Notes under the pieces: model-generated | Told to the model about the DNA's origin: nothing | Seen by the model: only the letters and a program-made list of their open reading frames with translations | Databases searched by the model: none | Translations under genes and position numbers: made by a program | Shown here: in pieces, positions 27,803 through 51,327 of the stretch | How positions within the stretch are numbered: position 1 is the first letter of the stretch | Layout of the letters: every line of letters starts with the position of its first letter | NCBI RefSeq assembly: GCF_030719295.1 | Contig: NZ_CP120998.1 | Coordinates: 265,813 to 329,812, forward strand | Direction of reading: 5' to 3' | Source of the DNA: Streptomyces sp. Mut1 | GTDB lineage: Bacteria; Actinomycetota; Actinomycetes; Streptomycetales; Streptomycetaceae | DNA length: 64,000 bases

Positions 27803-27808
27803 GACGGC

Positions 27809-29302: not shown

Positions 29303-29333
29303 GCCCGGCCACCCCACGAGACAGGAGACGACC

Positions 29334-35225: not shown

Positions 35226-35495
35226 GTGAGCACTCAGCCGTTCACGATCGAGGACCTCAAGCGAATCCTGCTCGAAGGCTCCGGCGCCGCGGAGGACGTG
35301 GACCTCGACACCGACATCCTGGACCAGGAGTTCGAGGACCTCGGCTACGACTCCCTGGCACTGCTGGAGACCAGCAGCCGGATCGAACGCACCTACGGCA
35401 TCACGATCTCCGACTCCATCCTGGCCGACGCGACGACCCCGCGCGCCCTGGTCGGAGCCGTCAACGAGCACCTGGCCGAGGACGCCGCGGCCTGA
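35226..35495 (+). CDS. Acyl carrier protein of the type II PKS
   Basis: 89 residues. The phosphopantetheine attachment Ser43 is in EDLGYDSLALLET, within an acidic four-helix protein (MSTQPFTIEDLKRILLEGSG at the start). The GTG at 35226 follows GAAGGAAGG and comes 74 bp after the CLF gene. It must be activated by a PPTase such as the one encoded at 6195-7007. It holds the growing chain for KS, KR and cyclases. Confidence 0.95.
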   Translation: MSTQPFTIEDLKRILLEGSGAAEDVDLDTDILDQEFEDLGYDSLALLETSSRIERTYGITISDSILADATTPRALVGAVNEHLAEDAAA

Positions 35496-35553: not shown

Positions 35554-36345
35554 ATGTCACAGGACACTCAGGACACCAGGGTCGCCGTCGTCACCGGCGC
35601 CACCAGCGGAATCGGTCTCGCCGTCGCCCGGCTGCTGGCCGGCCAGGGCCACCGGGTCTACATCGGGGCCCGCAACGCCGAGAACGTGGCCTCCACCGTC
35701 AAGGAGCTGCGGGAGGAGGGCCTCGACGTCGACGGCGCGACGCTCGACGTCCGGTCCCCGGAGGGCGTCGAGGAGTTCGTGCGCGCCGCCGTGCAGCGCT
35801 ACGGCACCGTCGACGTCCTGGTGAACAACGCGGGCCGCAGCGGCGGCGGCGTCACCGCCGACATCGACGACGAGCTGTGGGCCGATGTCATCGACACCAA
35901 CCTCAACAGCGTCTTCCGGATGACCCGCGCCGTGCTGAACGCGGGCGGCATGCGGGACAAGAGCCGGGGCCGCATCATCAACATCGCCTCCACCGCCGGC
36001 AAGCAGGGCGTCGTCCTCGGAGCGCCCTACTCGGCCTCCAAACACGGCGTGGTCGGCTTCACCAAGGCGCTCGGCAACGAACTCGCCCCGACCGGTATCA
36101 CCGTCAACGCCGTCTGCCCCGGCTACGTCGAGACCCCCATGGCCCAGCGGGTGCGCCAGGGCTACGCGGCGGCGTACGACACCGACGAGGCCGCGATCAT
36201 GAAGCGCTTCTCCGCGAAGATCCCGCTCGGCCGCTACTCGACCCCCGAGGAAGTGGCCGGCCTCGTCGGCTACCTGACCTCGGACACCGCGGCATCGATC
36301 ACGGCCCAGGCGCTCAACGTCTGCGGCGGACTCGGCAACTTCTGA
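35554..36345 (+). CDS. Type II PKS ketoreductase (ActIII/PgaD type)
   Basis: 263-residue SDR. NADPH motif TGATSGIGLAVAR, NNAGRSGGG (the GRSGGG extension is characteristic of C9 ketoreductases), active-site Ser in NIASTAGKQG, YSASKHGVVGF with Tyr/Lys, and the C-terminal ALNVCGGLGNF. It reduces the C9 carbonyl of the nascent chain before first-ring closure, as in actinorhodin and angucyclines. The ATG follows GGGAGCAG. It sits between the ACP and aromatase genes as in pga/cab/jad clusters. Confidence 0.95.
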   Translation: MSQDTQDTRVAVVTGATSGIGLAVARLLAGQGHRVYIGARNAENVASTVKELREEGLDVDGATLDVRSPEGVEEFVRAAVQRYGTVDVLVNNAGRSGGGVTADIDDELWADVIDTNLNSVFRMTRAVLNAGGMRDKSRGRIINIASTAGKQGVVLGAPYSASKHGVVGFTKALGNELAPTGITVNAVCPGYVETPMAQRVRQGYAAAYDTDEAAIMKRFSAKIPLGRYSTPEEVAGLVGYLTSDTAASITAQALNVCGGLGNF

Positions 36346-36379: not shown

Positions 36380-37336
36380 ATGACGACCCAGCACGTCGAG
36401 CACGAGATCACCGTGGCCGCGCCCGCGGCCGACGTCTACCGCCTGATCGCGGAGGTGGAGAACTGGCCACGGATATTCCCGCCCACCATCCACGTCGACG
36501 TCGCCGAACGGACCGGCACCGACGAGCGCATCCGGATCTGGGCCACCGCCAACGGCACCGCGAAGAACTGGACGTCCCGCCGCACCCTCGACCCCGAGGG
36601 GCTGCGCATCGAATTCCGCCAGGAGGTCTCCACCCCGCCCGTCGCGGCCATGGGCGGCACCTGGATCATCGAACCGCTCCCCGGCGGGGACTCCCGCGTC
36701 CGGCTCCTGCACGACTACCGGGCCATCGACGACGACCCGGACGGCCTGAAGTGGATCGAGGAGGCCGTCGACCGCAACTCCCGCTCGGAACTGGCCGCGC
36801 TCAGGACCAACGTCGAACTCGCGCACGCGTCGAAGGAACTGACCTTCTCCTTCGAGGACAGCGTGCGGATCGACGGACCGGCCAAGGACGCCTTCGACTT
36901 CATCAACGAAGCCGGCCTGTGGGCCGAGCGGCTGCCGCACGTGGCCTCCGTCCGCTTCGGCGAGGACGCTCCCGGGCTCCAGACCCTGGAGATGGACACC
37001 CGCGCCCGGGACGGCTCCGTGCACACCACCAAGTCCTACCGGGTGGCCTTCCCGCACCAGAAGATCGCGTACAAGCAGATCACGCTGCCCGCGCTCATGA
37101 CCCTGCACACCGGCTGCTGGACCTTCACCGAGGAGGATGACGGCGGCGTCACCGCCGTCTCCCAGCACACCGTGGTGCTCAACACGGCCAACATCGCCCG
37201 TGTCCTGGGCGAGGAGGCGACCGTCGAGGACGCCCGCGCCTATGTGCACGGCGCCCTGAGCACCAACAGCCGCGCCACGCTCGGTTACGCCAAGGAGTAC
37301 GCCGAGAGCGACAGCCACGCCGAGAGCAAGAGCTGA
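36380..37336 (+). CDS. Didomain aromatase/cyclase (PgaL/JadD type)
   Basis: 318 residues with two SRPBCC repeats: EHEITVAAPAADVYRLIAEV with NWPRIFPPTIHV, and DSVRIDGPAKDAFDFINEAG with ERLPHVASV. It catalyses first-ring (C7-C12) cyclisation and aromatisation of the 9-reduced chain. This is the canonical copy; the divergent one is at 8370-9332. The ATG follows TAGGAGACAC. The GTG of the next gene comes 3 bp after its stop, so expression is coupled. Confidence 0.93.
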   Translation: MTTQHVEHEITVAAPAADVYRLIAEVENWPRIFPPTIHVDVAERTGTDERIRIWATANGTAKNWTSRRTLDPEGLRIEFRQEVSTPPVAAMGGTWIIEPLPGGDSRVRLLHDYRAIDDDPDGLKWIEEAVDRNSRSELAALRTNVELAHASKELTFSFEDSVRIDGPAKDAFDFINEAGLWAERLPHVASVRFGEDAPGLQTLEMDTRARDGSVHTTKSYRVAFPHQKIAYKQITLPALMTLHTGCWTFTEEDDGGVTAVSQHTVVLNTANIARVLGEEATVEDARAYVHGALSTNSRATLGYAKEYAESDSHAESKS

Positions 37337-37338
37337 CC

Positions 37339-39696
37339 GTGGCCGCCCTGGACTGCGATGTCGTCGTCGTCGGAGCGGGACCGGTCGGGCTGCTCCTCGC
37401 GGGCGAACTCAGGCTCGGCGGGGCGCAGGTGGTGGTGCTGGAGCGCCGGGCGGAGCCCGGAACGGAGTCGCGGGCGTCCACGCTGCACGCCCGCACGATG
37501 GAGATCCTCGACAGCCGCGGCCTTCTGGACCGGCTGGGGCCCCTGCCCAACGACGTCATGGGCCACTTCGGCGGCATCCCGCTCGACCTGACCCTGCCGT
37601 CCCCGTATCCGGGGCAGTGGAAGATCCCGCAGACCAGCACCGAGGCCGCCCTGCGCGAGTGGGCGCTGTCCCTGGGCGCCGACCTGCGGCCCGGCCACGA
37701 GGTGACCGGGCTGACCGCACACCCGGACCATGTGACGGCCGAGACGGCGGGCCCGCGAGGACCGGTCAGCGCCCGGTACCTCGTCGCGTGCGACGGCGAG
37801 GACAGCACCGTCCGCCGGCTGACCGGAGCGGCCTTCCCCGGCGAGCCCGCACGCCGGGAGCTGATCCGCGCCGACGTCGCCGGTATCGACATCCCCGCCC
37901 GGCGCTTCCAGCGGCTGCCCCGGGGACTGGCCATCGCGGCCCGCAACCCGCAGGGCGTGACCCGGGTGATGGCGCACGAGTTCGGCACCCCGGCCCGGGA
38001 GCGGTCAGGGGCGCCCGGATTCGCCGAGATCCGCGACCTCTGGCAGCGGGTCACCGGGGAGGACATCGGGCACGGCGACGCCCTGTGGGTGAACTCCTTC
38101 GCGGACGCCGCCCGGCAGGTGGCCCACTACCGGCAGGGGCGGGTGCTGTTCGCGGGCGACGCCGCCCACCAGCAGATGCCCATCGGCGGCCAGGCCCTCA
38201 ACCTCGGGCTCCAGGACGCCGCCAACCTCGGCTGGAAACTCGCCCTCCAGGTGACCGGGCGGGCCCCCGAAGGCCTGCTCGACAGCTACCACACGGAGCG
38301 GCACGCGGTCGGCTCCCGGGCCCTCGGCAACATCAAGGCCCAGGCCCTGCTGCTCCTGGGCGGCGCCGAGGTGGAGGCGGTACGGGAGGTCGTCGCCGAA
38401 CTCGTACGGCGGGAACCGGTGCGCGCCCACCTCGCCGCGATGATCTCCGGCCTCGATATCCGGTACGACACCGGCCCCGGTACCCACGAACTCCTGGGCC
38501 GCCGCCTGGCCCACGGCCACCAGGGGCACGGCTCCCGGGGCCTGCTGCGGCCGCACACCGACGCGCCGGACCGGGCGGCCGGGCTGCGGCGGGCCCTGGC
38601 CCCCTGGAGCGACCGGGTCGACCTCGTCACGGACGGTACGCCGGCGGCCGTCCCCGACCCGGGGGCCACCGTGCTGATCCGGCCGGACGGATACGTCGTG
38701 TGGGCCGACGAGGAGCGGCCCCGGGGCGGCAGCGGCGAGGTGGAGCCGGCCGGGCTCGGCGCGGCCCTGCGGCGCTGGTTCGGCGAACCGGCGGCGAGCG
38801 GGACCGCGTACGACCTCACCCGCACGCCGCATCGCACCCCCGCCCGCACCCAGTCCCCGCCCCCGGCCGCACCCGGCGGCCCGGCCGTCGGCGCACCCTC
38901 ACACACCACCTCACATGGGAGAGACGCAGGTATGAACAGGTTCACGGGCAAGACGGCGCTGGTGACCGGTTCCAGCCGGGGCATCGGCCGGGCCATCGCC
39001 CTGCGGCTGGCCAGGGAAGGCGCACTCGTCGTCGTACACAGCTCCAGCGGCGGCCGGGCGGCGGACGACGTCGTCGCCACGATCGAGAAGGACGGCGGCA
39101 GGGCCTTCGCCGTCCGGGCGGAGCTGGGCGTGCCCGGCGACGTCCACGAACTCTTCCTCGGCCTGGAGCAGGGCCTGAAGGAACGTACCGGCACCGTCGA
39201 CCTGGACATCCTCGTCAACAACGCCGGGATCATGGGCGGCGGGGTCGCGGCCGACGCCACGACACCCGAGCAGTTCGACCGGCTCTTCGCGGTCAACGCC
39301 AAGGCGCCGTTCTTCGCGATCCAGCGGGCCCTGAAGAACCTGACCGACGGCGGCCGGGTCATCAACATCACGTCCGGGCTGACCCACTTCGCCAACCCGG
39401 AGGAGATCGCCTACGCGATGACGAAGGGCGCCGTCGAACAGCTGGCGCTGCACTTCGCCAAGTACCTCGCGCCGCGCGGCATCACCATCAACAGCGTCGC
39501 GCCCGGCATCACGCGCAACGACAACCCGGTCTTCGACATCCCGGAGGCCGTCGAGCAGATGGGGCAGCTGTCTGCGTTCGGCCGGGTGGGCGAGCCGAGG
39601 GACGTCGCCGACGTGGTGGCGTTCCTGGCGAGCGACGACGCCCGCTGGGTCACCGGGGCGTTCCTCGACGCCACCGGAGGCACCCTCCTGGGCTGA
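37339..39696 (+). CDS. Fused FAD monooxygenase and SDR reductase (PgaM/UrdM type)
   Basis: 785 residues. Residues 1-490 are a class A flavoprotein: GAGPVGLLLAGELRLGG, CDGEDSTVRRLTG, and RVLFAGDAAHQQMPIGGQAL. A Pro/Ala/Thr-rich linker covers about 490-530. From about 532 there is a complete SDR: GSSRGIGRAIALRLA, NNAGIMGGGVAAD, YAMTKGAVEQLAL, with the end ATGGTLLG. PgaM, CabM, UrdM and LanV have this architecture and carry out 2,3-dehydration/12b-hydroxylation and C6 ketoreduction in angucycline formation. In PgaM the reductase is also made separately from an internal start. A matching internal ATG is at 38932. The GTG at 37339 starts the frame. Confidence 0.93.
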   Translation: MAALDCDVVVVGAGPVGLLLAGELRLGGAQVVVLERRAEPGTESRASTLHARTMEILDSRGLLDRLGPLPNDVMGHFGGIPLDLTLPSPYPGQWKIPQTSTEAALREWALSLGADLRPGHEVTGLTAHPDHVTAETAGPRGPVSARYLVACDGEDSTVRRLTGAAFPGEPARRELIRADVAGIDIPARRFQRLPRGLAIAARNPQGVTRVMAHEFGTPARERSGAPGFAEIRDLWQRVTGEDIGHGDALWVNSFADAARQVAHYRQGRVLFAGDAAHQQMPIGGQALNLGLQDAANLGWKLALQVTGRAPEGLLDSYHTERHAVGSRALGNIKAQALLLLGGAEVEAVREVVAELVRREPVRAHLAAMISGLDIRYDTGPGTHELLGRRLAHGHQGHGSRGLLRPHTDAPDRAAGLRRALAPWSDRVDLVTDGTPAAVPDPGATVLIRPDGYVVWADEERPRGGSGEVEPAGLGAALRRWFGEPAASGTAYDLTRTPHRTPARTQSPPPAAPGGPAVGAPSHTTSHGRDAGMNRFTGKTALVTGSSRGIGRAIALRLAREGALVVVHSSSGGRAADDVVATIEKDGGRAFAVRAELGVPGDVHELFLGLEQGLKERTGTVDLDILVNNAGIMGGGVAADATTPEQFDRLFAVNAKAPFFAIQRALKNLTDGGRVINITSGLTHFANPEEIAYAMTKGAVEQLALHFAKYLAPRGITINSVAPGITRNDNPVFDIPEAVEQMGQLSAFGRVGEPRDVADVVAFLASDDARWVTGAFLDATGGTLLG
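38912..38934 (+). promoter_or_regulatory. Candidate internal translation start for the free SDR domain
   Basis: The in-frame ATG at 38932 begins MNRFTGKTALVTG, exactly where an SDR protein should start. It is preceded by GGGAGAGACGCAGG. Initiation here would give a 254-residue stand-alone reductase in addition to the 785-residue fusion, as shown for pgaM and cabM. Confidence 0.65.
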
Positions 39697-39746: not shown

Positions 39747-41186
39747 ATGCCCATGACACGCACTCAGGATTCCTTCGGCTCCCCGCCCGCCGCAGGGGAG
39801 CGGTGGAGCCCCCGGCTGTGGGGGCTGCTGTTCGTCCTGGCCGGGAACATGCTCATCGACGCCCTCGAAGTGTCGGCGATGATCGTGGCCATGCCGGCGG
39901 CGGGCAAGGCGCTCGGCCTGTCGCTGACCGGGGCGCAGTGGCTGATCACCGGCTTCGCCGTCGGCTTCGGCGGGCTCATCCTCTTCGGCGGCCGGCTCGT
40001 GGAACTCCTCGGCCGGCGCCGCGTCTATCTGTGGGCGCTGCTCGGCTTCGCCGCGGCGTCCCTGGCGGGCGGGCTGACCGACGAACCCGCCGTGCTGGTG
40101 GCCACCCGGATACTGAAGGGCTTCTTCGCCGCGCTGACCGCGCCCACCGGCCTCGCGATCATCGCCTCGGAGTTCCCGGCGGGGCGGAGCCGCGAGCGCG
40201 CGGTGTCCGTCTACACCCTCTTCGGCGGTTCCGGGTTCGCCGCGGGCCTGGTGCTGTCGGGTCTGCTGACCGCGGTCAGCTGGCGCTGGACCGTCGCCTT
40301 CCCGGCCCCCATCGTCCTGGTCCTGTTCGCCTTCGCCGTACGCCTGATCCCGCGCGGCCCCGCGCCCTCCGCCCCGCCCCCGGGCACCCCGCGCCACTTC
40401 GACGTGCCCGGTGCGCTCGCCCTGACCGGGGCCCTGGTGTGCCTGGTGCAGGGCATCGTCTCGGTGCCGGCCCACGGCTGGCTCGACGCGCGCGCGGCCG
40501 GCCCGCTGACGCTGGCCGTGGTGCTGGGCGCGCTCCTCGTCGCCGCGGAGCGCACCGCGCCCCGGCCGCTGATCCAGGGCCGGCTGCTGCGCAACCGCAC
40601 GCTGCTCCGCTCGATGGCCGGGGCCGCCGCGCTGAACGGCGTGAACCTGGGGCTGCTGCTGATCCTGACGGCCCGGCTGCAGACCGGCCTCGGCTGGTCC
40701 CCGCCGCGCACCGCCCTGGCACTCCTGCCCGCCAGCGTGCCACTGGCCGTCACGGCACTGCTGTCCCGGAAGCTGATCGCCCGTTACGGCACCGCCCGGC
40801 TGATCACGCTGGGGGCGCTGGGCCCGGTCCTGGGCGCGGCGCTCTGCCTGCGCCACCCGGTCCCGGAGCGCTACGTCACCGACGTGCTGCCGGCCCTGCT
40901 GCTGGTCGGCGCGGGGTTCGTGCTGGCCTTCGCCGCGCTGAACACCCAGGCCACCTCCCGGCTGGCCGCCGTCGACCGGGCGGCCGCCATCGGTCTCTAC
41001 CAGAGTGCCGTGCAGGTCGCCGCCGTCGTCGTGCCGGCCCTGGCCGCGGCGCTGGCCGTCGGCCGGTCCGACGACCGCGCGGCGTTCCTGCTCGTCACCG
41101 CCGTCGCCGTGGCCGGGCTGCTCGCCGGGCTCAGCGGCTTGAGAGACGGTCGGGCCCGGGTCGAGAAACCATCCAGAGGAGAGTGA
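39747..41186 (+). CDS. MFS drug exporter (DHA2-like)
   Basis: 479 residues, very hydrophobic, with about 12-14 predicted membrane segments. Family signs are the loop GGRLVELLGRRRVY (motif A), TRILKGFFAALTAPTGLAII, and LTGAQWLITGFAVGFGGLIL (motif D1-like) in the first half. It probably exports the cluster product using the proton gradient and gives self-resistance. The ATG at 39747 follows AAGGAG, 50 bp after the fused oxygenase, so it ends the core operon before the carboxylase genes. A second MFS gene (44317) has its own MarR repressor. Confidence 0.9.
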   Translation: MPMTRTQDSFGSPPAAGERWSPRLWGLLFVLAGNMLIDALEVSAMIVAMPAAGKALGLSLTGAQWLITGFAVGFGGLILFGGRLVELLGRRRVYLWALLGFAAASLAGGLTDEPAVLVATRILKGFFAALTAPTGLAIIASEFPAGRSRERAVSVYTLFGGSGFAAGLVLSGLLTAVSWRWTVAFPAPIVLVLFAFAVRLIPRGPAPSAPPPGTPRHFDVPGALALTGALVCLVQGIVSVPAHGWLDARAAGPLTLAVVLGALLVAAERTAPRPLIQGRLLRNRTLLRSMAGAAALNGVNLGLLLILTARLQTGLGWSPPRTALALLPASVPLAVTALLSRKLIARYGTARLITLGALGPVLGAALCLRHPVPERYVTDVLPALLLVGAGFVLAFAALNTQATSRLAAVDRAAAIGLYQSAVQVAAVVVPALAAALAVGRSDDRAAFLLVTAVAVAGLLAGLSGLRDGRARVEKPSRGE

Positions 41187-41193: not shown

Positions 41194-42783
41194 ATGTCCG
41201 TAACCGACACGACTCCGGCCCGGCGTACCGAATGGACGCTGTACGAGCGCCTGGAGGAACTCCGGCTGATCAAGGACGAGGCCCGGCACGGCCCGGACCC
41301 GGCCGCCACCGACCGGCAGCACGCCAAGGGCAAGCTGACGGCGCGTGAGCGCATCGCGCTGCTGCTCGATGAGGGTTCGTTTCATGAGGTGGAGCAGTTG
41401 CGCCGGCATCGGGCGACGGGTTTCGGCCTGGAGGCGAAGAAGCCGTACACCGATGGTGTGATCACCGGGTGGGGCACGGTGGATGGCCGGACGGTGTTCG
41501 TGTACGCGCATGATTTTCGGATCTTCGGTGGTGCGCTGGGTGAGGCCCACGCGACGAAGATCCACAAGATCATGGACATGGCGATCTCGGCCGGTGCGCC
41601 GCTGGTCTCGCTGAACGACGGCGCGGGTGCCCGTATCCAGGAGGGCGTCTCGGCGCTCGCCGGGTACGGGGGGATCTTCCAGCGCAATACCAGGGCGTCG
41701 GGTGTCATCCCGCAGATCAGCGTGATGCTCGGTCCGTGTGCGGGCGGCGCGGCCTACAGTCCCGCCCTCACCGACTTCGTGTTCATGGTCCGTGAGACCT
41801 CGCAGATGTTCATCACCGGTCCGGACGTCGTCAAGGCGGTCACGGGCGAGGAGATCACGCAGAACGGCCTCGGCGGCGCCGACGTGCACGCGGAGACCTC
41901 GGGCGTCGCGCACTTCGCGTACGACGACGAGGAGACCTGCATCGCCGAGGTCCGCTACCTCATCGGACTGCTGCCCTCCAACAACCGTGAACTCGCCCCG
42001 ACCGTCCTGTCCGACGACCCGCACGACCGGCGGAGCGACGCACTGCTCGACCTGGTCCCCGCCGACCCCGGCCGGGTCTACGACATGCGCGCCGTCATCG
42101 AGGAGATCGTCGACAACGGGGACTTCTTCGAGATCCACTCCGGCTGGGCGGGCAACAGCCTCTGCGTCCTGGCCCGCCTCGGCGGCGAGGTCGTCGGCAT
42201 CGTCGCCAACCAGCCGGCCACCACCGCCGGGGTACTGGACATCCGGGCCAGCGAGAAGGCGGCCCGCTTCGTCCAGTTCTGCGACGCCTTCAACATCCCG
42301 CTGGTCACACTCATCGACGTACCCGGCTTCCTGCCCGGCATCGAACAGGAGCACAACGGCATCATCCGGCACGGCGCGAAGCTGCTCTACGCCTACTGCA
42401 ACGCCACCGTTCCTAGAGTCTCGGTCGTGGTTCGCAAGGCATACGGTGGTGCCTACATCGTGATGGACTCAAGGTCCATCGGAACCGACCTGTCTTTTGC
42501 CTGGCCCGGCAACGAGATCGCGGTCATGGGGGCGGAGGGCGCGGCCAACGTCATCTTCCGCCGCGAGATCAACAGCGCCGACGACCCCGAGGCGATGCGG
42601 CGGCAGAAGATCGAGGAGTACCGCTCCCAGCTCATGCATCCGTACTACGCGGCCGAACGCGGCCTCGTGGACGACGTCATCGACCCCCGGACGACCCGCG
42701 AGACCCTCATCGGATCGCTCGCGATGCTGCGCGACAAGCACGCCGAACTGCCCTCCCGCAAGCACGGCAACCCCCCTCTGTGA
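41194..42783 (+). CDS. Acyl-CoA carboxylase carboxyltransferase (beta) subunit, copy 2
   Basis: 529 residues, same enzyme as 2180-3772. The segment KGKLTARERIALLLDEGSF through DEETCIAEVRYL is nearly identical in protein and DNA to the first copy, but the N-terminal ~45 residues and the region after residue ~265 (IGLLPSNNRELAPTV) differ normally. The shared block also uses more T-ending codons (GAT, GGT, TTT, CAT) than its own flanks. It provides malonyl-CoA for the PKS. Its epsilon partner follows after 9 bp. The ATG at 41194 comes 7 bp after the MFS stop. Confidence 0.95.
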   Translation: MSVTDTTPARRTEWTLYERLEELRLIKDEARHGPDPAATDRQHAKGKLTARERIALLLDEGSFHEVEQLRRHRATGFGLEAKKPYTDGVITGWGTVDGRTVFVYAHDFRIFGGALGEAHATKIHKIMDMAISAGAPLVSLNDGAGARIQEGVSALAGYGGIFQRNTRASGVIPQISVMLGPCAGGAAYSPALTDFVFMVRETSQMFITGPDVVKAVTGEEITQNGLGGADVHAETSGVAHFAYDDEETCIAEVRYLIGLLPSNNRELAPTVLSDDPHDRRSDALLDLVPADPGRVYDMRAVIEEIVDNGDFFEIHSGWAGNSLCVLARLGGEVVGIVANQPATTAGVLDIRASEKAARFVQFCDAFNIPLVTLIDVPGFLPGIEQEHNGIIRHGAKLLYAYCNATVPRVSVVVRKAYGGAYIVMDSRSIGTDLSFAWPGNEIAVMGAEGAANVIFRREINSADDPEAMRRQKIEEYRSQLMHPYYAAERGLVDDVIDPRTTRETLIGSLAMLRDKHAELPSRKHGNPPL

Positions 42784-42792
42784 CGGAGAACC

Positions 42793-43029
42793 ATGTCGGA
42801 CATCCGGGTAATCCGCGGCTACGCTACTCCCGAGGAACTCGCCGCTCTCGTCGTGGTGTTGATGGCCCGGTCCGCCGCGGCCCAGCCCCAGCCCCTTCGC
42901 CCGTCCCGCCGCCGCGCACCCAACTGGCACCGCCTCGAACGCGCGCTGCGCCACAGCGGCGCCCGGGGCTGGGGCCGGGAGCAGGGAACGGGCCGCACGC
43001 TCGCAGTGAGCTCCCCGGGCCGGACTTGA
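42793..43029 (+). CDS. Acyl-CoA carboxylase epsilon subunit, copy 2
   Basis: 78 residues: MSDIRVIRGYATPEELAALVVVLMARSAAA..., then a basic Trp-containing tail (APNWHRLERAL). The pattern (strand, then PEELAALVVVL helix) is that of actinobacterial epsilon subunits. It begins 9 bp after the beta gene with GGAG upstream. It is more typical than the epsilon at 3808-4020. The pair suggests two independently acquired carboxylase modules in one cluster. Confidence 0.88.
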   Translation: MSDIRVIRGYATPEELAALVVVLMARSAAAQPQPLRPSRRRAPNWHRLERALRHSGARGWGREQGTGRTLAVSSPGRT

Positions 43030-44316: not shown

Positions 44317-45816
44317 ATGGCTGAAGAGCACATCACCGCGCCCCGTGAGTCCGGCGCCGCCACCCCGGACGCCCGGCGCTGGCAGGCCCTGGTCTACATC
44401 GCCCTCGCCCAGCTGATGGTGTCCGTGGACAGCACCATCGTGAACATCGCGCTGCCCTCCGCACAGCGGGCACTCGACATCTCCGACAGCAACCGGCAAT
44501 GGGTCATCACCGCCTACATGCTCGCCTTCGGCGGATTACTGCTCCTGGGCGGCCGGATCAGCGACACCATCGGCCGCAAGCGCGCCTTCCTCATCGGCGT
44601 CATCGGCTTCGGAGTGGCGTCCGCCATCGGCGGCCTGGCGGTCAACTCCGGGATGCTGCTGACCGCGCGGGCCCTGCAAGGCGCGTTCGGCGCCCTGCTG
44701 GCACCGGCCGGCCTGTCCCTGCTGGCGGTCACGTTCGCCGAACCCAAGGAGCGGGCCAAGGCCTTCGGGGTGTTCAGCGCGATCGCCGGAAGCGGCTCCG
44801 CCGTCGGCCTGATCCTCGGCGGCGTGCTGACCGAGTACCTCAACTGGCGCTGGTCCCTCTTCGTGAACATCGCCTTCGCCGTGGTCGTGGTGGCCGGCGC
44901 CGTCTCCGTCGTCCGCGACGAGGGCAGCCGCCCGCCCCGCGAGAAGCTCGACATCGCCGGCACCCTGCTCTCCGTCGCCGGAATCGTCGCCCTCGTCTAC
45001 GGATTCACGCTCGCCGACAGCGAAGGCTGGACCGCCACCCCCACGCTGGCCCTCTTCGTGGCGTGCGTCGTCCTGCTGACCCTGTTCGTGGTCGTCGAGA
45101 AGCGGAGCAGCGCACCGCTCCTGCCGCTGCGGATCGTGACCGAGCGCAACCGGGCCGGTGTCTTCGCCTCCCAGGCACTCGCCGTGATCACCATGTTCGG
45201 CCTGCTGCTCTTCCTGACCTACTACTTCCAGGAGATCCGCGGCTACGGCGCCCTCGCCTCGGGTGTGGCGTTCCTGCCCATGGTGGCCGGCATGCTCATC
45301 GGGGCGGGCCAGATCGCCAGCCGCATGATGCCGAAGACGGCCCCGCGCTGGATCATGGGCCCCGGCTTCCTCGTCGCCGCACTCGGCATGCTGATCCTGA
45401 CCCAGCTGGACGTCGACTCCTCCTACCCGCTGCTCGTCCTGCCCGGCCAGCTGCTGTTCGGCATCGGCCTCGGCATGGCCTTCACCCCGGCGATGAGCCT
45501 GGCCACCCACGGCGTCGAGGACCACGAGACCGGTGTCGCGTCCGCGATGATCAACGCCTCGCAGCAGCTCGGCGGCTCCATCGGCACCGCCCTGCTCAAC
45601 ACCATCGCGGCCAGCACCGCCGCCGCCTACCTGGCCTCCCACAGCGGCGGCTCCGGCATCGCGAACCAGGCGGCGGTCCACGGCTACGCCGTCGCCGTGT
45701 GGTGGACCGTCGGCATCCTGCTGCTGGCCGGCGCGCTGATCATGCTCACCAACAACCTGCCCAAGCCGCGGCAGGACGAGAAGGCGGCCGAGGACATCGC
45801 CCCCGTAGCCGTGTAG
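44317..45816 (+). CDS. MFS exporter, EmrB/QacA (14-TMS DHA2) family
   Basis: 499 residues. Motif A is GGRISDTIGRKRAFLIG; the start ALAQLMVSVDSTIVNIALPSA (motif D1) and the loop around SAIAGSGSAVGLILGGVLTEYL (antiporter motif C) are diagnostic of the drug:H+ antiporter-2 family. It probably exports the polyketide. Codon 44536-44538 is TTA, so synthesis should need the bldA tRNA, tying efflux to development. It is under the divergent MarR repressor. The ATG at 44317 follows GAAGTGAG. It is followed by an alpha/beta hydrolase gene 119 bp later. Confidence 0.95.
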   Translation: MAEEHITAPRESGAATPDARRWQALVYIALAQLMVSVDSTIVNIALPSAQRALDISDSNRQWVITAYMLAFGGLLLLGGRISDTIGRKRAFLIGVIGFGVASAIGGLAVNSGMLLTARALQGAFGALLAPAGLSLLAVTFAEPKERAKAFGVFSAIAGSGSAVGLILGGVLTEYLNWRWSLFVNIAFAVVVVAGAVSVVRDEGSRPPREKLDIAGTLLSVAGIVALVYGFTLADSEGWTATPTLALFVACVVLLTLFVVVEKRSSAPLLPLRIVTERNRAGVFASQALAVITMFGLLLFLTYYFQEIRGYGALASGVAFLPMVAGMLIGAGQIASRMMPKTAPRWIMGPGFLVAALGMLILTQLDVDSSYPLLVLPGQLLFGIGLGMAFTPAMSLATHGVEDHETGVASAMINASQQLGGSIGTALLNTIAASTAAAYLASHSGGSGIANQAAVHGYAVAVWWTVGILLLAGALIMLTNNLPKPRQDEKAAEDIAPVAV

Positions 45817-45935
45817 GCGGCACAGCCGCACCCCATGAACGGCGACCGCCGGCGCCCCTCCCCCGTGGCGTCGGCGGTCGCTGCCGTTCGCGGCCCGCCC
45901 GCACGACCGGCCCCCGACGCAGCACAGGAGACCTC

Positions 45936-46859
45936 GTGGACCACGAGCAAGAGGCGGCGAACTCCTCCGTGCCCGCACCCGCCACCGGCACACCCCCGGT
46001 CCGTACGGTCACCCTGCACGGCAACGGCGTCACCCTCTCCGGACTGCTCGCCGAACCCGCCCGCGAACCCCGCGCCCTCCTGGTGGCCCTGCACGGCGGC
46101 GGAATGCGGGCCGGATACTTCGACGGCCGCGCCGACCCGGCCACCTCGCTGCTGACCCTCGCCGCGTCCTGCGGATACACGGCACTCGCCGTCGACCGCC
46201 CCGGCTACGGCCGGTCCGCCGCGCGACTCCCCGGCGGCGCGGCCCTGTCCGAGCAGGCGGACACCCTCCGCGCCGCCCTGGACGACTACCGGCTCCGCCA
46301 CCCCGCCGGCGCCGGAGTCCTCCTCGTCGGACACTCCCTGGGCGGTGCCACCGCCCTGCACACGGCCTCACGGTGGACGGACAAAGGACTCCTCGGCGCG
46401 GACGTCTCCGGCATCGGCGACCGATGGGCCCCCGCCGCGAAACAACTCGCCGCACGCGGCGGCCGCCTCTCCCACCGCATGCACTGGGGACCCCTCGCCC
46501 TCTACCCGCCCGGCACCTTCCGCTCCGCCGACACCCTGATCACGCCCGTCCCCGAGCGGGAGGCCCGCGAAATACTGGACTGGCCCCAGACGTACGCCCG
46601 GCTGGCACGGCACGTGCGGGTGCCGGTGCGGTTCACCTTCGCCGAGCACGAACGGTGGTGGCGCAGCGACCCGGAGACCGTACGGGCCATGCTCGGCCGC
46701 CTCGGATCCCCGCTGTCCCGGAGCGAACGGCTCCCCGGCGCGGGCCACAACATCAGCCTCGGCCGGACGGCCCGCGCCTATCATCTGCGGGTCCTCGCCT
46801 TCCTGGAGGAGTGCCTGACACTCCCGGAAGCCGCGAAGAACCCGCCGGGACCCCGCTGA
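45936..46859 (+). CDS. Alpha/beta hydrolase
   Basis: 307 residues from the GTG at 45936 behind CAGGAGA. The oxyanion region is LVALHGGGMRAGYFDG, the nucleophile elbow LLVGHSLGGATALH (Ser), and the late histidine is in LPGAGHNISLGRTA; an acid is plausible in the FTFAEHERWWRSD segment. No signal peptide. Such hydrolases in polyketide clusters may cleave esters or lactones, or act as detoxifying or editing enzymes. It is probably cotranscribed with the MFS exporter. Substrate unknown. Confidence 0.85.
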   Translation: MDHEQEAANSSVPAPATGTPPVRTVTLHGNGVTLSGLLAEPAREPRALLVALHGGGMRAGYFDGRADPATSLLTLAASCGYTALAVDRPGYGRSAARLPGGAALSEQADTLRAALDDYRLRHPAGAGVLLVGHSLGGATALHTASRWTDKGLLGADVSGIGDRWAPAAKQLAARGGRLSHRMHWGPLALYPPGTFRSADTLITPVPEREAREILDWPQTYARLARHVRVPVRFTFAEHERWWRSDPETVRAMLGRLGSPLSRSERLPGAGHNISLGRTARAYHLRVLAFLEECLTLPEAAKNPPGPR

Positions 46860-47079: not shown

Positions 47080-47613
47080 ATGACGGATCACGAGACCGGG
47101 GGTCGATTCCTCGTGCGACAGGATCAAGTCGACGTCAAACTTCTGCGCTGGCCTGCGGAATCGGCCAGAAGACGCCAATGCATGGAAGAAGGCCTCCTGC
47201 GCCTGCTCATCGTGGAGGGCGGCGGCCCCGCCCCGATCTGCTCCGACACACGCGAGGACTGGGCACGGGCGCCCATCAGCAACGACGACTTACGCGCACG
47301 GATGACAGCCCTGCGCGCCAAGTCCTACCCCTTCACCGTACCGACCGTCGACCCGAGCGGTGCGCTGAAGTACCGCGACCGCGTAGTAGCGGTCTCACCT
47401 GTGGAAACAGCCTTACTGGACAGCCTGACCGGCTCCTTCCGAGCGCTCGTGGGCCGTGAGGAACTACTGGACCGCCTGGGCGAACGCCAGGCGTGCATCA
47501 GCCGCAACGCACTGGACCTGCACATCATGCGCATCCGCCGGCGCATCCAGCCGCTGGGCCTGGCGCTCCAGACCGCCCGGGGCAGGGGCTACATCCTCGC
47601 ACCGGCCTCCTGA
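47080..47613 (+). CDS. Winged-helix (OmpR-type C-terminal) regulator with TTA codons
   Basis: 177 residues. The C-terminal ~90 residues (LKYRDRVVAVSPVETALLDSL, LLDRLGERQACISRNALDLHIMRIRRRI, ARGRGYIL) form a PhoB/OmpR-type winged helix. The N-terminal ~85 residues (QVDVKLLRWPAESARRRQCM, LLRLLIVEGGGPAPICSDT, EDWARAPISNDDLRARMTAL) are not a phosphorylatable receiver. This architecture occurs in Streptomyces orphan regulators. Leucine codons 47290-47292 and 47413-47415 are both TTA, so it is strongly bldA dependent. It lies directly upstream of the thiosugar genes and is probably their local activator. No clear Shine-Dalgarno precedes the ATG at 47080. Confidence 0.8.
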   Translation: MTDHETGGRFLVRQDQVDVKLLRWPAESARRRQCMEEGLLRLLIVEGGGPAPICSDTREDWARAPISNDDLRARMTALRAKSYPFTVPTVDPSGALKYRDRVVAVSPVETALLDSLTGSFRALVGREELLDRLGERQACISRNALDLHIMRIRRRIQPLGLALQTARGRGYILAPAS

Positions 47614-47770
47614 CAAAAAGGTACGGCGGAAACATCCCCCGGAAAACAGGATGGAAAGACAGCGGACAGGAACGGCTGACAGGCCCGCCGAGTTCGATGT
47701 CCAATGTTTCGGCAGCATGAAGAAACCCGTTGCTCGCGGCATTCTGCCATCCACTCCGATGGGATACTCC

Positions 47771-48541
47771 ATGACCATTCAGCGACCGGCCTCCATCGAC
47801 CACCGGGAACCCTGGCTCAGGATCGGCACCCGCGAGTTCCGTTCCCGCCTGATCGTCGGAATCGAGCAGTACGATTCCGTCTCCGTGGTGCGGGACGTCC
47901 TCACGGTGACCGAAGCCGACATCTTCATCACCACCGTCGACCCGGACAACCGCCGCAGCAGCCTCCTGCTGTCCGACCTGGACGCCGCCCTCGACCTCGA
48001 CCGGTTCACCTGGATCGGCACCACCTCGTTCGCCCGCTCCAAGGACGGCGCCCTGCGCACGGCCGACGTCCTGCGCGACTCCTGGGGCATCGACATCCTG
48101 AAGCTGGACGTACGCGGCGACAACAACATGCCCGACAACCGCCAGACCATCGAAGCCGCCCACGAACTGAGGGCGAAGGGCTGGTCGCTGCTGCCCTTCA
48201 TCCTGCCCGACCTGAGCACCGCCCTGGCCCTCCAGGACGCGGGCTGTTCGGCGCTGCGCGTCATGGCGGCCCCCGTCGCCTCCGGGCGCGGCATCGTCGA
48301 CCCCGGCCCCATCCAGGAGATCATCGACGTCCTGAGCATCCCCGTCATCGTCGAAGGCGGCCTCGGCACCGCCCACCACGTCGCCCAGGCCATGGGCATG
48401 GGAGCCGCGGCCACCCTCGTCAACACCGCCCTCGTCGAGGCGAAGGACCCGATGAAGATGGCACTGGCCATGCGGCACGCCACCACAGCGGGCCGCTGCG
48501 CCTACGAGTCCGGACCGATGGCCGAGACCATCGCGGCCTGA
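47771..48541 (+). CDS. bexX: ThiG-like 2-thiosugar synthase (BexX homologue)
   Basis: 256 residues, TIM barrel of the thiazole synthase family: LRIGTREFRSRLIVG at the start, GIDILKLDVRGDN with the Schiff-base Lys111, LLPFILPDLSTALALQDAGC, PVASGRGIVDPGPIQEI, VIVEGGLGTAHHVAQAMGMGA and TALVEAKDPMKMALAM. There is no thiS, thiF or thiO beside it and thiamine is not made here. In BE-7585A biosynthesis BexX, a ThiG homologue, forms an adduct with glucose 6-phosphate through this lysine (Lys110) and inserts sulfur from a carrier-protein thiocarboxylate, giving 2-thioglucose 6-phosphate. The angucycline context and the GT20 gene two places downstream make that the preferred role. The start at 47771 is chosen by lysine numbering; 47717 is possible. 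Confidence 0.88.
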   Translation: MTIQRPASIDHREPWLRIGTREFRSRLIVGIEQYDSVSVVRDVLTVTEADIFITTVDPDNRRSSLLLSDLDAALDLDRFTWIGTTSFARSKDGALRTADVLRDSWGIDILKLDVRGDNNMPDNRQTIEAAHELRAKGWSLLPFILPDLSTALALQDAGCSALRVMAAPVASGRGIVDPGPIQEIIDVLSIPVIVEGGLGTAHHVAQAMGMGAAATLVNTALVEAKDPMKMALAMRHATTAGRCAYESGPMAETIAA

Positions 48542-48635
48542 GGAAAGGCCCGCCGGCCCAGCGCCCGACGCCGGCCCGGTGCACACCGCGCAGGAGAGGA
48601 TGACGTACCCCTGAACCGCCAAGAGGGTTACAGCC

Positions 48636-48657
48636 CCACCCGGGAACACCCGGGTGG
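48636..48657 (+). promoter_or_regulatory. Short perfect hairpin at the 5' end of the exporter gene
   Basis: CCACCCGGG (48636-48644) and CCCGGGTGG (48649-48657) form a 9-bp stem with an AACA loop. It lies in the stretch that is either leader RNA or the frameshifted N-terminal coding part of the exporter gene. Confidence 0.5.
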
Positions 48658-48748
48658 CAGCGCGGCCGGCCCGAACCGGCCACCGCACACGGCCGGGCCG
48701 GGCGACCCGTGGCCAGGCGTACCGGCGTTCGTCGCCGGCACCACGGCC

Positions 48749-49915
48749 GTGGCCGCCATCGGCCTCGCCGCAGGCGGAACAGCCGGCGTCCTGCTCGCCA
48801 CGGAACTGGCCGGCACGGCCTCGGTGGCCGGACTGCCCGTGGCCCTCCACCTGGGCGGCTCGGCGGCCGGCGCACTCCTGGTGTCCCACCAGGCAGGACG
48901 CGGACACCGCGGCCGCGGACTGGCCCTCGGCCTGGTCCTCGGGGCCTTCGGGGCACTGGTCGTCGTCCTCGCCGCCCGGCAGGGCAGCCTCGGCTGGATG
49001 CTGGCCGGCAGCGCCCTGCTGGGCATGGCCAACTCCTCCATCTTCCTTCTCCGTTACACCGCGGCCCAGGCCGTGCCGGAAGGCAACCGCGGCAGGGCAC
49101 TGGGCCTGGTGTTCCTCGCCACCGCCATCGGCGCGGTCATCAGCCCACTGCTGCTCGGCCCCAGCGGCTCCGCCGCACGGGCCGTGGGCCTGCCCACACT
49201 GTGCGGCCTGTACCTGGTCGCCTTCGCGGCGTTCGGCTGCTCCGCGCTCCTGCTGGCAGCGGGCTGCTCCCCGCGCACACCCGTACTGGGACGGGCCGCC
49301 GGCGTGCTCGCCTCCGGCACGAAACCCGCACGCGGCACCCTCCGGCTGGGCGCCGCACTGCGGGAGCCGGCAGCCGTGGTGGCCATGAGCGCGCTGGCCG
49401 GGGCCAACTTCATCATGGTCGGCATCATGACGATCACCCCGGTGCACCTCAGCCAGCACGGCGCGAGCACCGGCGTGGTCGGCTCCTTCGTGGCGCTGCA
49501 CGTCGTCGGCATGTTCGCCCCCGCCCCCCTCGTCGGACGACTCGCCGACCGCCACGGGCCCGTACCCGTCGTCCTCATCGGCGCCGTGATCTCCCTCGTG
49601 GCCTGCGCACTCGGCGGCTTCAGCACAGGCCCCACAACGATGACCACCGCGCACCTCGTCCTGGCGGGCCTCGGCTGGAACTTCGGCGTGGTCGGCGCCA
49701 GCACACTGCTGACCGGCGCGGTCCCAGGACAGCTACGCCCCTACGTCGAGGGGATCGGCGAAGCCACGATGGGCGCCGCCGCCATGGTCGTCGCCCCCCT
49801 CGTGGCCCTCTTCCCCGGCGCCTGGGGATACCAGCTCCTGGCGCTCTGCGCCCTCGCACTCACAGCCCTCGCCCTCGCCCGCATGCGCGTCCCCGCCTCC
49901 GGCCCGCTCGCCTAG
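48749..49915 (+). CDS. MFS transporter of the thiosugar module, N-terminus uncertain
   Basis: 388 residues from the GTG at 48749, with about 11-12 hydrophobic segments: LATELAGTASVAGLPVALHL, the loop SHQAGRGHRGRGLALGLVLG, LRYTAAQAVPEGNRGRALGLV in the first half, and LVGRLADRHGPVPVVLIGAV as motif A of the second half. The frame is open upstream to 48611 without ATG/GTG/TTG, and a good ribosome site (CAGGAGAGG) precedes an ATG at 48600 that runs in another frame. One extra C in the CCCC run at 48608-48611 would join them (MTYPLNRQ...). So the true start is probably 48600, with either a sequence error or a frameshift. It is likely an exporter for the glycosylated product. Confidence 0.82.
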   Translation: MAAIGLAAGGTAGVLLATELAGTASVAGLPVALHLGGSAAGALLVSHQAGRGHRGRGLALGLVLGAFGALVVVLAARQGSLGWMLAGSALLGMANSSIFLLRYTAAQAVPEGNRGRALGLVFLATAIGAVISPLLLGPSGSAARAVGLPTLCGLYLVAFAAFGCSALLLAAGCSPRTPVLGRAAGVLASGTKPARGTLRLGAALREPAAVVAMSALAGANFIMVGIMTITPVHLSQHGASTGVVGSFVALHVVGMFAPAPLVGRLADRHGPVPVVLIGAVISLVACALGGFSTGPTTMTTAHLVLAGLGWNFGVVGASTLLTGAVPGQLRPYVEGIGEATMGAAAMVVAPLVALFPGAWGYQLLALCALALTALALARMRVPASGPLA

Positions 49916-49932
49916 ACATCAAGGATGCCGAC

Positions 49933-51327
49933 ATGAAAATTCTGACCTGCAGCAACAGCTGCCCCCAGTGGACGGACGGACAGCTCAACCCCCGCTCCGC
50001 GGGCGGGCTCGTCCCCATGCTGATCGCCCTGCTCGACGAACACGGCGGCGACTGGATCTTCACCTCACCCCCCGGCGACGACCTGCCCGCATCGGTGACC
50101 CTGGCCGGCGGCGTCACCCTGCACCCCATGGGCCTGGACGAGGACCTGCGCCGCCACCACTACGACACCATCTCCATCCAGCTGTTGCTGGGACTCCTGC
50201 ACTACATGCACGACACGTCCGTCGAACCCGTCTTCGACAGCAGGCTCGCCGACGCATGGGCGGGCTACGAGACCGTGAACCGGCTGTACGCGCAGCGGCT
50301 CACCACCCTGTCCGCCGACACCGCCGACGAACTGATCCTCATCAACGACCCGCACCTCATGCTCGTCCCGGAGTTCTTCACCGCGGGCAAGACCTCCAGG
50401 CAGAGCAAGCTCACCTACTTCCTCGGCACACCCTGGTGCGAGCCCGACTACTTCACCCTCCTGCCGGGACACGTCCGCACCCGGATCCTGGAATCCCTCC
50501 TCACCTGCGACACCGTCGGCTTCCACGCCCGCCGCTGGACCGACGCATTCGCCGCCTGCTGCGCCAGGTTCCTGCCCGACGCCGTCATCGAGGGCGACAC
50601 CGTCGTGCACCGGGGCCACCGCACCCGCCTGGTGTCCTCCCCGTTCCCGCTCGACGTACAGGTGCTGGACACGATGGTGGAGGAACCCGCCACCGCGTCA
50701 TGGACCCAGCGGCTGACGGAGATGGCGGACGGCCGGCGCGTGATGGTGCGGGCCGACCGGATCGACCTCTGGAAGAACATGCCCCGCGGGTTCGCCGCCT
50801 TCGAAGCGGCCCTGGAACGCTCCCCGGAACTCGCCGAAACCACCTGGTTCCTCGCCATCGGCACCTCGCCCAGCCGCGCGTCCGCCCGCCACCTCGCCTA
50901 CCAGCGGCTCACCGAGGAGGCGATCCAACGGGTCAACGACCGCTTCGGGAAACCCGGCCGGCCGGTGGCCACCCTCCTCCAGCCCGGCAAGGGCCGCGAC
51001 TCGCGCAACTGCGTCGTCGCCGCCCTGCTCATGAGCACCGCGGCGATCGTCAACTCCACCTACGACGGCCTCAACCTGTTCGCCAAGGAGGCCGCCTACC
51101 TGCTGGACGACTCCGCTTCGCTGCTCCTGTCGGTCAACGCGGGCATCCACGAACAGCTCGGCCCGTTCGCCCGCGCCATCGACCCCTTCGACATCGACCA
51201 GAGCAGCCGCGTCATCGAGGCCGCGCTGAACACGGCCGCCGACGGCACCGGCCCCGCCGAGAAGCGCCGCGCACTGCTGCGCTCGGAGACCGCCGAGGAG
51301 TGGCTCACCTCGGTCTTCCCCAGCTGA
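49933..51327 (+). CDS. bexG2: GT20 glycosyltransferase, trehalose-6-phosphate-synthase-like (BexG2 homologue)
   Basis: 464 residues, GT-B fold. ELILINDPHLMLVPEFF corresponds to the HDYHL region of OtsA; RADRIDLWKNMPRGFAAFEAAL matches the E/V-R-L-D-x-x-K-G segment; STYDGLNLFAKEA is the DGMNLVAKE donor-binding motif. Canonical trehalose-phosphate synthases join UDP-glucose and glucose 6-phosphate. BexG2 of BE-7585A uses 2-thioglucose 6-phosphate instead to give 2-thiotrehalose 6-phosphate. Pairing with the ThiG-like gene strongly suggests this activity. No trehalose phosphatase gene is visible in the window. The ATG follows AAGGA; the gene ends before a strong terminator. Confidence 0.88.
   Translation: MKILTCSNSCPQWTDGQLNPRSAGGLVPMLIALLDEHGGDWIFTSPPGDDLPASVTLAGGVTLHPMGLDEDLRRHHYDTISIQLLLGLLHYMHDTSVEPVFDSRLADAWAGYETVNRLYAQRLTTLSADTADELILINDPHLMLVPEFFTAGKTSRQSKLTYFLGTPWCEPDYFTLLPGHVRTRILESLLTCDTVGFHARRWTDAFAACCARFLPDAVIEGDTVVHRGHRTRLVSSPFPLDVQVLDTMVEEPATASWTQRLTEMADGRRVMVRADRIDLWKNMPRGFAAFEAALERSPELAETTWFLAIGTSPSRASARHLAYQRLTEEAIQRVNDRFGKPGRPVATLLQPGKGRDSRNCVVAALLMSTAAIVNSTYDGLNLFAKEAAYLLDDSASLLLSVNAGIHEQLGPFARAIDPFDIDQSSRVIEAALNTAADGTGPAEKRRALLRSETAEEWLTSVFPS

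What the first reader, a model, noticed from the sequence alone, without database searches (positions are those of the whole stretch)
47080..51327. BexX/BexG2-like thiosugar module beside an angucycline core
Seen: a ThiG-family protein with the Schiff-base lysine (LKLDVRGD, Lys111) but no thiamine genes around it, followed by an exporter and a GT20 trehalose-phosphate-synthase-like enzyme, all about 7 kb from a complete angucycline gene set. Known: in BE-7585A biosynthesis BexX makes 2-thioglucose 6-phosphate and BexG2 couples it to glucose. Inference: this locus makes a thiosugar-bearing angucycline, possibly new because the tailoring set (two ABM didomain oxygenases, P450, extra cyclase) is unlike a plain BE-7585A cluster and no deoxysugar genes are visible here.
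Basis: partly seen in the sequence, partly recalled or inferred. Interest (0 to 1): 0.9.

Follow-up and report, generated by a model that had tools for sequence, protein, structure and literature searches.

The report
Thiosugar cassette beside an angucycline cluster
A Streptomyces plasmid carries the genes for an antibiotic-type angucycline next to a three-gene cassette that probably makes and exports a rare sulfur-containing disaccharide; the same cassette also occurs without angucycline genes in other actinobacteria, so the sulfur sugar may be a product in its own right.

Summary
Observation confirmed. 47771-48541 is a BexX-type ThiG-fold protein, not a thiazole synthase: 365 bits against the solved 'thiosugar synthase' 4n6e, 135 against the best true ThiG; the host has its own thiG-thiS. 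An MFS exporter and a GT20 enzyme follow; the GT20 carries a signature (FLGTPW) found in 68 of its 68 best hits and 2 of the next 52. Likely product: 2-thiotrehalose 6-phosphate, made with borrowed host sulfur carriers, then coupled to the angucycline as a thioether.

Core plus cassette form one block, about 88% identical on three other plasmids, ending at the GT20 gene. A BE-7585A-type Amycolatopsis cluster shares core, P450/ferredoxin and cassette but has deoxysugar genes that the window lacks.

New: the cassette is portable. Of 17 cassette loci, 8 are angucycline-linked, 8 have no angucycline core within 17-40 kb, 1 is unclear; linkage changed at least 2-3 times on the tree. Related BexX loci carry their own sulfur carriers, and four combine BexX with GlgA-, MalQ- and TreY-like genes, perhaps a second route to a 1,1-linked thiosugar. 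Chemistry is untested.

The parts
47771..48541 (+). BexX-type 2-thioglucose-6-phosphate synthase (ThiG fold), Lys111
   Evidence: 365 bits to 4n6e against 135 to true ThiG; 70% identical to G458 BexX, 35% to the host ThiG
48683..49915 (+). MFS exporter of the cassette (longest ORF starts at 48749; homology starts near 48683)
   Evidence: an MFS gene lies between BexX and GT20 in 17 of 17 cassette loci
49933..51327 (+). GT20 enzyme, BexG2-type (predicted 2-thiotrehalose-6-phosphate synthase); FLGTPW from residue 163, NDPHL from residue 138; last gene of the conserved block
47182..47613 (+). regulator with Trans_reg_C domain
   Evidence: conserved in the plasmid block
43109..43693 (+). NADPH-dependent FMN reductase; a 37% relative lies next to BexX in A. 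xylanica and two genes from BexX in G458
25420..26229 (+). HTH_67 (SCO6745) family protein, shared with A. xylanica
26261..27523 (+). cytochrome P450
   Evidence: 66% to G458, 75% to A. xylanica
27557..27802 (+). ferredoxin
27809..29302 (+). second angucycline-type FAD monooxygenase
   Evidence: 74% to A. xylanica
29334..29993 (+). ABM-type didomain oxygenase a
   Evidence: 37% identical to b; no Pfam match
30104..30742 (+). ABM-type didomain oxygenase b
30834..32303 (+). PgaE/BexE-type FAD oxygenase
32337..32666 (+). TcmI-type polyketide cyclase
32663..33934 (+). ketosynthase alpha
33931..35151 (+). chain-length factor
35226..35495 (+). acyl carrier protein
35554..36345 (+). ketoreductase
36380..37336 (+). 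aromatase/cyclase
37339..39696 (+). fused FAD oxygenase-SDR reductase (the architecture described for LugOII)
39747..41186 (+). MFS transporter 1
41194..43029 (+). acyl-CoA carboxylase beta subunit and a small protein annotated as epsilon subunit in the plasmid relative
43756..44187 (-). MarR regulator
44317..46859 (+). MFS transporter 2 and alpha/beta hydrolase

Best explanation
The three genes at 47.8-51.3 kb are a cassette that makes and exports a 2-thiotrehalose unit, built into an angucycline cluster. BexX (Lys111) forms an imine with a hexose 6-phosphate and takes sulfur from the thiocarboxylate of a sulfur-carrier protein borrowed from host primary metabolism and charged by the host MoeZ-like enzyme, giving 2-thioglucose 6-phosphate. 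The GT20 enzyme joins it to UDP-glucose as 2-thiotrehalose 6-phosphate. A host phosphatase (for example the OtsB-like protein) removes the phosphate. The free thiol then adds to an electrophilic site of the angucycline (quinone or epoxide) as a thioether, and the product leaves through an MFS pump. The aglycone carries no deoxysugar made by this cluster. Shown here: the gene identities, the host's own thiG/thiS, OtsB-like and ThiF-family genes, the block conservation, and the missing deoxysugar homologues. Inferred: every reaction, the phosphatase, the coupling chemistry and the transport substrate.
For: BexX identity: 365 bits to 4n6e against 135 to the best ThiG; in the quick tree the window row is in a 22-row group (SH-aLRT 100) with G458 BexX and without the host ThiG. 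GT20: 60% identical to the GT20 beside G458 BexX; FLGTPW in 68 of 68 best hits and 2 of the next 52. Linkage: 3 of 140 matching plasmid records carry 98% of the queried 24.9 kb at 87.9-88.7% identity; nucleotide identity ends at 51328, 51329 and 51466 in L007, L034 and L018. G458 has the same core plus cassette, and G441 shows the same run of matches. Host relay: four ThiS-like matches, one next to a cysteine-synthase-like gene by eye; a 392-aa ThiF-family protein that reads like MoeZ by eye; an OtsB-like match next to a protein that reads like OtsA by eye. Literature: BexX, MoeZ and borrowed carriers make the 2-thiosugar of BE-7585A (passages of PMC5321127, PMC4784017, PMC6225789). The title of a paper on an enzyme-bound 2-ketohexose in BexX is in a reference list. 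That BexG2 makes 2-thiotrehalose 6-phosphate, and that BE-7585A holds it through sulfur, is recalled; the 2010 paper is not held.
Against: No gene for the coupling step or for phosphate removal is in the cassette. Half of the cassette loci have no angucycline core nearby, so the cassette does not need one. The linked Streptomyces loci form one clade and may descend from one event. The Gly where solved GT20s have His is not specific to the clade: the nearest non-cassette GT20s (FHGLPW) have it too. No product, expression or mutant data.
Confidence: 0.62

Rival explanations
1. The cassette works on its own: it makes and exports free 2-thiotrehalose (a sugar thiol, trehalose mimic or antibiotic in its own right), and the angucycline cluster next to it is a neighbour on the plasmid, at most co-regulated.
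For: 8 of 17 cassette loci have no angucycline core within 17-40 kb. In two Amycolatopsis genomes (G480, G485) nadA/nadB/nadC-like genes lie on the GT20 side, and in G480 WXG100-like genes on the other (names by eye; the other side of G485 was not read). In Prauserella the neighbours are response regulators, TerC and Sua5. An MFS gene is always between (17 of 17). The linked cassettes are not one clade (AU p 2.9e-68; 2.0e-51 without A. xylanica).
Against: In the window's clade and in the BE-7585A-type clusters the cassette is inside or at the edge of an angucycline block, and BE-7585A carries a 2-thiosugar. Some unlinked cassettes have other biosynthetic genes near (NRPS, P450 and oxidases in L006; an NRPS gene in L008, the unclear locus; P450 and a 37% PgaE-like gene in G402), so they may decorate other scaffolds and not stand alone.
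Confidence: 0.25
2. The GT20 enzyme couples a different acceptor (a cyclitol as in validamycin, or another phosphorylated sugar), so that the product is not 2-thiotrehalose.
For: GT20 enzymes can change acceptor: the validamycin enzyme VldE is among its best solved relatives (E 4.7e-41 to 3.6e-40).
Against: 60% identity to the GT20 next to the exact BexX relative, which from recall is BexG2, shown to use 2-thioglucose 6-phosphate. No cyclitol synthase among the 40 of 64 called window genes that were scanned with Pfam.
Confidence: 0.06
3. An ordinary second thiazole synthase or a second trehalose-phosphate synthase (thiamine or osmolyte duplicates).
For: Pfam calls them ThiG and GT20; public annotation names plasmid relatives nitronate monooxygenase and trehalose-6-phosphate synthase.
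Against: The host keeps its own thiG-thiS and an OtsB-like gene beside an OtsA-like one (OtsA by eye); the protein is 35% identical to the host ThiG and 70% to BexX; the GT20 scores 181 bits against a cut-off of 565 for OtsA.
Confidence: 0.02

Closest known systems
BE-7585A cluster (bex) of Amycolatopsis orientalis subsp. vinearia, represented here by the cluster of genome G458, whose BexX matches 4n6e by eye
   Same: angucycline minimal PKS, PgaE/BexE-type oxygenase, oxygenase-reductase, P450 and ferredoxin, FMN reductase, and the BexX-MFS-GT20 cassette
   Different: seven G458 genes at 23112-30648 (deoxysugar and transferase genes among them, by eye) and one at 32729 find no window homologue; the window adds a second FAD monooxygenase, two ABM didomain oxygenases and an HTH_67 protein, which the A. 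xylanica locus shares
Amycolatopsis xylanica locus L010
   Same: HTH_67, P450, ferredoxin, FAD monooxygenase, both ABM oxygenases, FMN reductase and the cassette within 11 kb, with two TetR-type genes between (one scanned)
   Different: an NDP-hexose 2,3-dehydratase at the contig end; PKS cores lie on other contigs (C5, C16 and C10), and which of them belongs to this locus is not known
lug/tac angucycline clusters (lugdunomycin, thioangucycline)
   Same: fused oxygenase-SDR and a pair of ABM-family proteins; in lug the ABM protein LugOIII is reported to install a C6a-C12a epoxide (passages of PMC10728087)
   Different: orthology of the window's ABM pair was not tested; sulfur in thioangucyclines is described as inorganic and added without an enzyme (a passage of PMC8733708 citing Cao 2021); the passages I saw mention no BexX gene
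Housekeeping ThiG and OtsA
   Same: protein families
   Different: 35% identity to the host ThiG; 181 bits on the OtsA model, cut-off 565

Membership tests
BexX-type 2-thiosugar synthase | closer to BexX (4n6e, identity by recall) than to thiazole synthases, Schiff-base lysine kept | tested here: met
   365 against 135 bits; ILKLDV lysine at residue 111
BexX-type 2-thiosugar synthase | no dedicated sulfur carrier in the cluster; host carriers and a MoeZ-like enzyme available | tested here: met
   four ThiS matches in the genome at E <= 0.001, all on C1, none in the window; ThiF-family protein on C1, MoeZ-like by eye, rhodanese part not scanned
BexX-type 2-thiosugar synthase | makes 2-thioglucose 6-phosphate from glucose 6-phosphate and a thiocarboxylate | not testable with these tools
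   enzyme assay needed
BexG2-type 2-thiotrehalose-6-phosphate synthase | GT20 enzyme next to a BexX gene, in the same clade as the GT20 gene of the BE-7585A-type cluster | tested here: met
   group of 17 cassette GT20s, support 99/99, apart from three other GT20s
BexG2-type 2-thiotrehalose-6-phosphate synthase | uses 2-thioglucose 6-phosphate and UDP-glucose | not testable with these tools
   enzyme assay needed
BE-7585A-type cluster | angucycline core with BexE-type oxygenase plus BexX and GT20 | tested here: met
BE-7585A-type cluster | deoxysugar (rhodinose, by recall) genes and their glycosyltransferase | tested here: not met
   no window homologue of the seven G458 genes at 23112-30648; names of those genes by eye. 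So the window cluster is not filed as a BE-7585A cluster but as a variant that works like it
Housekeeping thiazole synthase (ThiG) | only thiG of the genome, or linked to thiS | tested here: not met
   the host thiG with thiS lies on C1:1812925-1813871
OtsA trehalose-phosphate synthase | reaches the TIGR02400 cut-off | tested here: not met
   180.7 bits against 564.85

The most novel reading that the evidence does not exclude
2-Thiotrehalose (or a close 1,1-linked thio-disaccharide) is an exported actinobacterial metabolite in its own right, made by a portable BexX-MFS-GT20 cassette, and by a second, non-homologous route (BexX with its own sulfur carrier, HAD protein, GlgA-, MalQ- and TreY-like enzymes and a related MFS pump in Micromonospora and Catellatospora). 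Angucycline clusters recruited the cassette at least twice as a source of a sulfur nucleophile.
Probability: 0.42. Interest if true: 0.8.

Novelty: new variant of a known kind. Interest (0 to 1): 0.62.

Why it matters
Sulfur sugars are rare; [quoted passage not shown] The window gives a version without deoxysugar genes on a Streptomyces plasmid, and the comparison shows that the thiosugar genes are a movable unit with an exporter, easy to miss because public annotation names the key enzyme thiazole synthase or nitronate monooxygenase. Two questions become testable: does a free thio-disaccharide exist, and is it attached to polyketides through its thiol.

Tried and rejected
Housekeeping ThiG or OtsA duplicates: rejected. 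A link between all GT20 relatives and BexX: rejected; the eight genomes whose GT20 is 42-52% identical show no BexX match in the 19.9 kb fetched around it. One origin of angucycline linkage on the cassette tree: rejected by the AU test with all eight linked rows and with A. xylanica left out. The groups were set by gene context before any tree was seen; leaving A. xylanica out was decided afterwards. Gain or loss stays open. The quick BexX tree has long branches (host ThiG 6.99) and an unsafe root; I rely on the GT20 and joined trees. A Gly-for-His change in the GT20 as a mark of the clade: dropped, since the nearest non-cassette GT20s (FHGLPW) have the same Gly; FLGTPW as a whole and NDPHL (70 of 120 hits) remain. 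Contig-length matching between the BexX and GT20 listings (27 of 68 signature GT20s against 2 of 52 others share a longest-contig length with a listed BexX relative) is a weak hint, since each list stops at 120 and equal lengths can be chance. Orthology of the ABM pair with LugOIII/LugOV was not tested. No structure prediction or fold search was run. Literature: the two BE-7585A papers and the thioangucycline paper are not held. Searches for BexX, thioglucose, BE-7585A, thiotrehalose, thiosugar, rhodonocardin, thioangucycline and genome-mining terms listed no paper whose title or shown start of abstract describes free-standing thiosugar cassettes. Three of those lists were cut (20 of 265, 20 of 21, 20 of 25), and of the papers I saw passages or one section only.
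Full report
What is there. My gene calls place a ThiG-family gene at 47771-48541, an MFS gene at 48749-49915 (homology from about 48683) and a GT20 gene at 49933-51327, all on the + strand. The window is the right end of contig C2 (329,812 bases) of a 7.99-Mb genome with four contigs; C1 has 7,646,342 bases. The nearest relative, L005 (99% for BexX), is Streptomyces sp. ATexAB-D23; its match position equals that of G155, marked same species. Contig number and sizes fit the table for Streptomyces castrisilvae Mut1 (section read), said there to be the same species as ATexAB-D23 (passages). So the window is probably from that strain's plasmid; this naming is inference.

BexX. The protein scores 364.8 bits (E 2.1e-108) against 4n6e, named putative thiosugar synthase, and 134.7 bits against the best thiazole synthase. 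That 4n6e is BexX is recalled. The Amycolatopsis protein P0046 reads letter for letter like 4n6e over the aligned stretch, by eye. Its contig length, 10,190,959, equals that of G458, and the G458 gene starts with the same letters, so I use the G458 locus as the BE-7585A-type reference. The window protein is 70% identical to it and 35% to the host's own ThiG, which lies beside ThiS.

GT20. It is 60% identical to the GT20 of G458. In the tree, 17 cassette GT20s form a group with support 99/99 apart from three other GT20s. FLGTPW is in 68 of the 68 best database hits and in 2 of the next 52; NDPHL is in 70 of all 120. Solved relatives have His where this clade has Gly (FTHTPW in 5lqd, FVHIPW in VldE), but so do the nearest non-cassette GT20s (FHGLPW in L128 and L134), so that change alone is not a mark of the clade. 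The host has an OtsB-like gene next to a protein that reads like OtsA by eye.

Sulfur supply. No ThiS-like match falls in the window; four are on C1. One (ending VAGGMN) is beside a cysteine-synthase-like gene and near a small protein that looks, by eye, like a JAMM-type protease. A 392-aa ThiF-family protein reads like MoeZ. This would fit the borrowed relay described for BE-7585A (passages of PMC5321127, PMC4784017 and PMC6225789).

The angucycline cluster. Minimal PKS, cyclases and a PgaE/BexE-type oxygenase are clear. Against G458 the window shares the core, P450, ferredoxin, oxygenase-reductase (over half of its length), FMN reductase and cassette. Seven G458 genes at 23112-30648 (deoxysugar and transferase genes among them, judged by their N-termini, not scanned) and one at 32729 find no window homologue. 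The window's second FAD oxygenase, both ABM proteins and the HTH_67 protein are shared with Amycolatopsis xylanica L010, where they run into the cassette; L010 also has an NDP-hexose 2,3-dehydratase at its contig end. The two ABM proteins are 37% identical. In lugdunomycin an ABM protein is reported to make an angucycline epoxide (passages). I suggest, as inference only, that such an electrophile could be opened by the thiol of 2-thiotrehalose.

One block. Megablast of 24.9 kb (26400-51327) against 72,556 plasmid records gave 140 matching records, of which 3 hold at least 80% in one place: 98% coverage at 87.9-88.7% identity. Two of the three were looked up and are linear. Only these 3 of 72,556 records hold the GT20 at E <= 1e-60. 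Nucleotide identity stops at 51328 in L007, 51329 in L034 and 51466 in L018, at or just past the GT20 stop. So the cassette belongs to the block and is its last part. Several of the 17 further records listed show ketosynthase and chain-length-factor genes under the match, that is, related cores without the cassette.

Portable cassette. A scan of genome contigs gave 25 loci with BexX relatives. A cassette-type GT20 (62-99%) is in 10 of these 25 genomes, each time just after BexX and MFS. With the window, one plasmid (L034) and five Amycolatopsis genomes the set is 17 loci. Eight are counted as linked: window, L005 (contig broken between core and cassette), L007, L018, L034, G458, G441, and L010 by its tailoring genes, its PKS cores being on other contigs. 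Eight are not, searched 17-40 kb to each side: L006, L009, L011, L015, L017, G480, G485, G446. L008 is unclear: a 14.4-kb contig with an NRPS gene. Against a purely free-standing reading: L006 has NRPS, P450 and oxidase genes near the cassette, and G402 (L015) a P450 and a 37% PgaE-like gene, so some may serve other scaffolds. For it: in G480 and G485 nad genes lie on the GT20 side (by eye), and Prauserella has regulators, TerC and Sua5. On the trees the linked state needs 3 changes; one clade is rejected (AU p 5.6e-36 for GT20, 2.9e-68 joined). Without L010 it needs 2 changes and one clade is still rejected (p 2.0e-51). Frequency: 5 of 392 genomes of the window's genus and 13 of 80 of the genus of A. 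xylanica have a BexX relative at E <= 1e-60; of the 13, the six at 69-76% identity carry the cassette, and the other seven (48-58%) were not followed beyond short loci, except L024.

Wider family. Thirteen of the 25 loci carry a ThiS/MoaD-like carrier near BexX and 14 an HAD protein; in L011, L015 and L017 the carrier follows the GT20 gene. In four loci (L012, L013, L014, L016) the order is BexX, carrier, HAD, GlgA-like, MalQ-like, TreY-like, MFS. Only L012 was scanned: TreY passes its cut-off (814 against 499 bits), GlgA (420 against 328) and MalQ (312 against 206) too. TreY turns a reducing-end 1,4 link into a 1,1 link (established knowledge), so this looks like a second way to a trehalose-like thiosugar. 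Three Cellulomonas loci add a protein with ThiF and rhodanese domains (one scanned; 481 bits on the MoeZ model, under its cut-off of 647). These loci are outside the window and are the most novel part.

Verdict. Cassette identity: about 0.85 likely. Coupling to the angucycline: about 0.65. A variant that works like the BE-7585A cluster but lacks its deoxysugar genes, with a new, movable setting for the sugar genes. No chemistry was seen.

Noticed in passing
L012, L013, L014, L016 (about 9.96-18.2 kb in each): BexX, sulfur carrier, HAD protein, GlgA-like, MalQ-like, TreY-like and MFS genes in one run in Micromonospora and Catellatospora; possible second route to 1,1-linked 2-thioglucose.
   Followed up: partly
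L022, L025, L027 and L020, L023, L029: Cellulomonas loci with BexX, HAD, carrier and a ThiF-rhodanese protein; Streptomyces loci with BexX, HAD, carrier and MFS, which could make free 2-thioglucose.
   Followed up: partly
L035 (NZ_CP108468.1 229609-249111): The whole cassette is present twice in inverted orientation near a plasmid end, with IS3 genes between.
   Followed up: no
13969-16045 and 54305-56350, also 17362-18288 and 52517-53887: The angucycline region lies between two diverged copies of a DUF6009-like plus D5-type primase pair (72% for the primase, by way of L005) and two ParA-like genes.
   Followed up: no
2180-12652: A second carboxylase beta subunit (about 80% like 41194-42783, by way of relatives), a condensation-domain protein, a polyketide cyclase and a KR suggest another biosynthetic cluster at the left, with an AfsA-type gene at 12970.
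   Followed up: no
21361-23859: MTHFR (metF) and a class II DAHP synthase precede the angucycline genes and are also next to the cluster on NZ_CP108034.1.
   Followed up: no
L128-L135: GT20 relatives at 41-52% identity in other actinobacteria without a BexX match nearby; four of the eight have a distant ketosynthase-like match (30%) nearby.
   Followed up: no
NZ_CP108034.1 6731-7504 and listed relatives: Public annotation names BexX-type proteins nitronate monooxygenase, thiazole synthase or HisA/HisF-related.
   Followed up: partly
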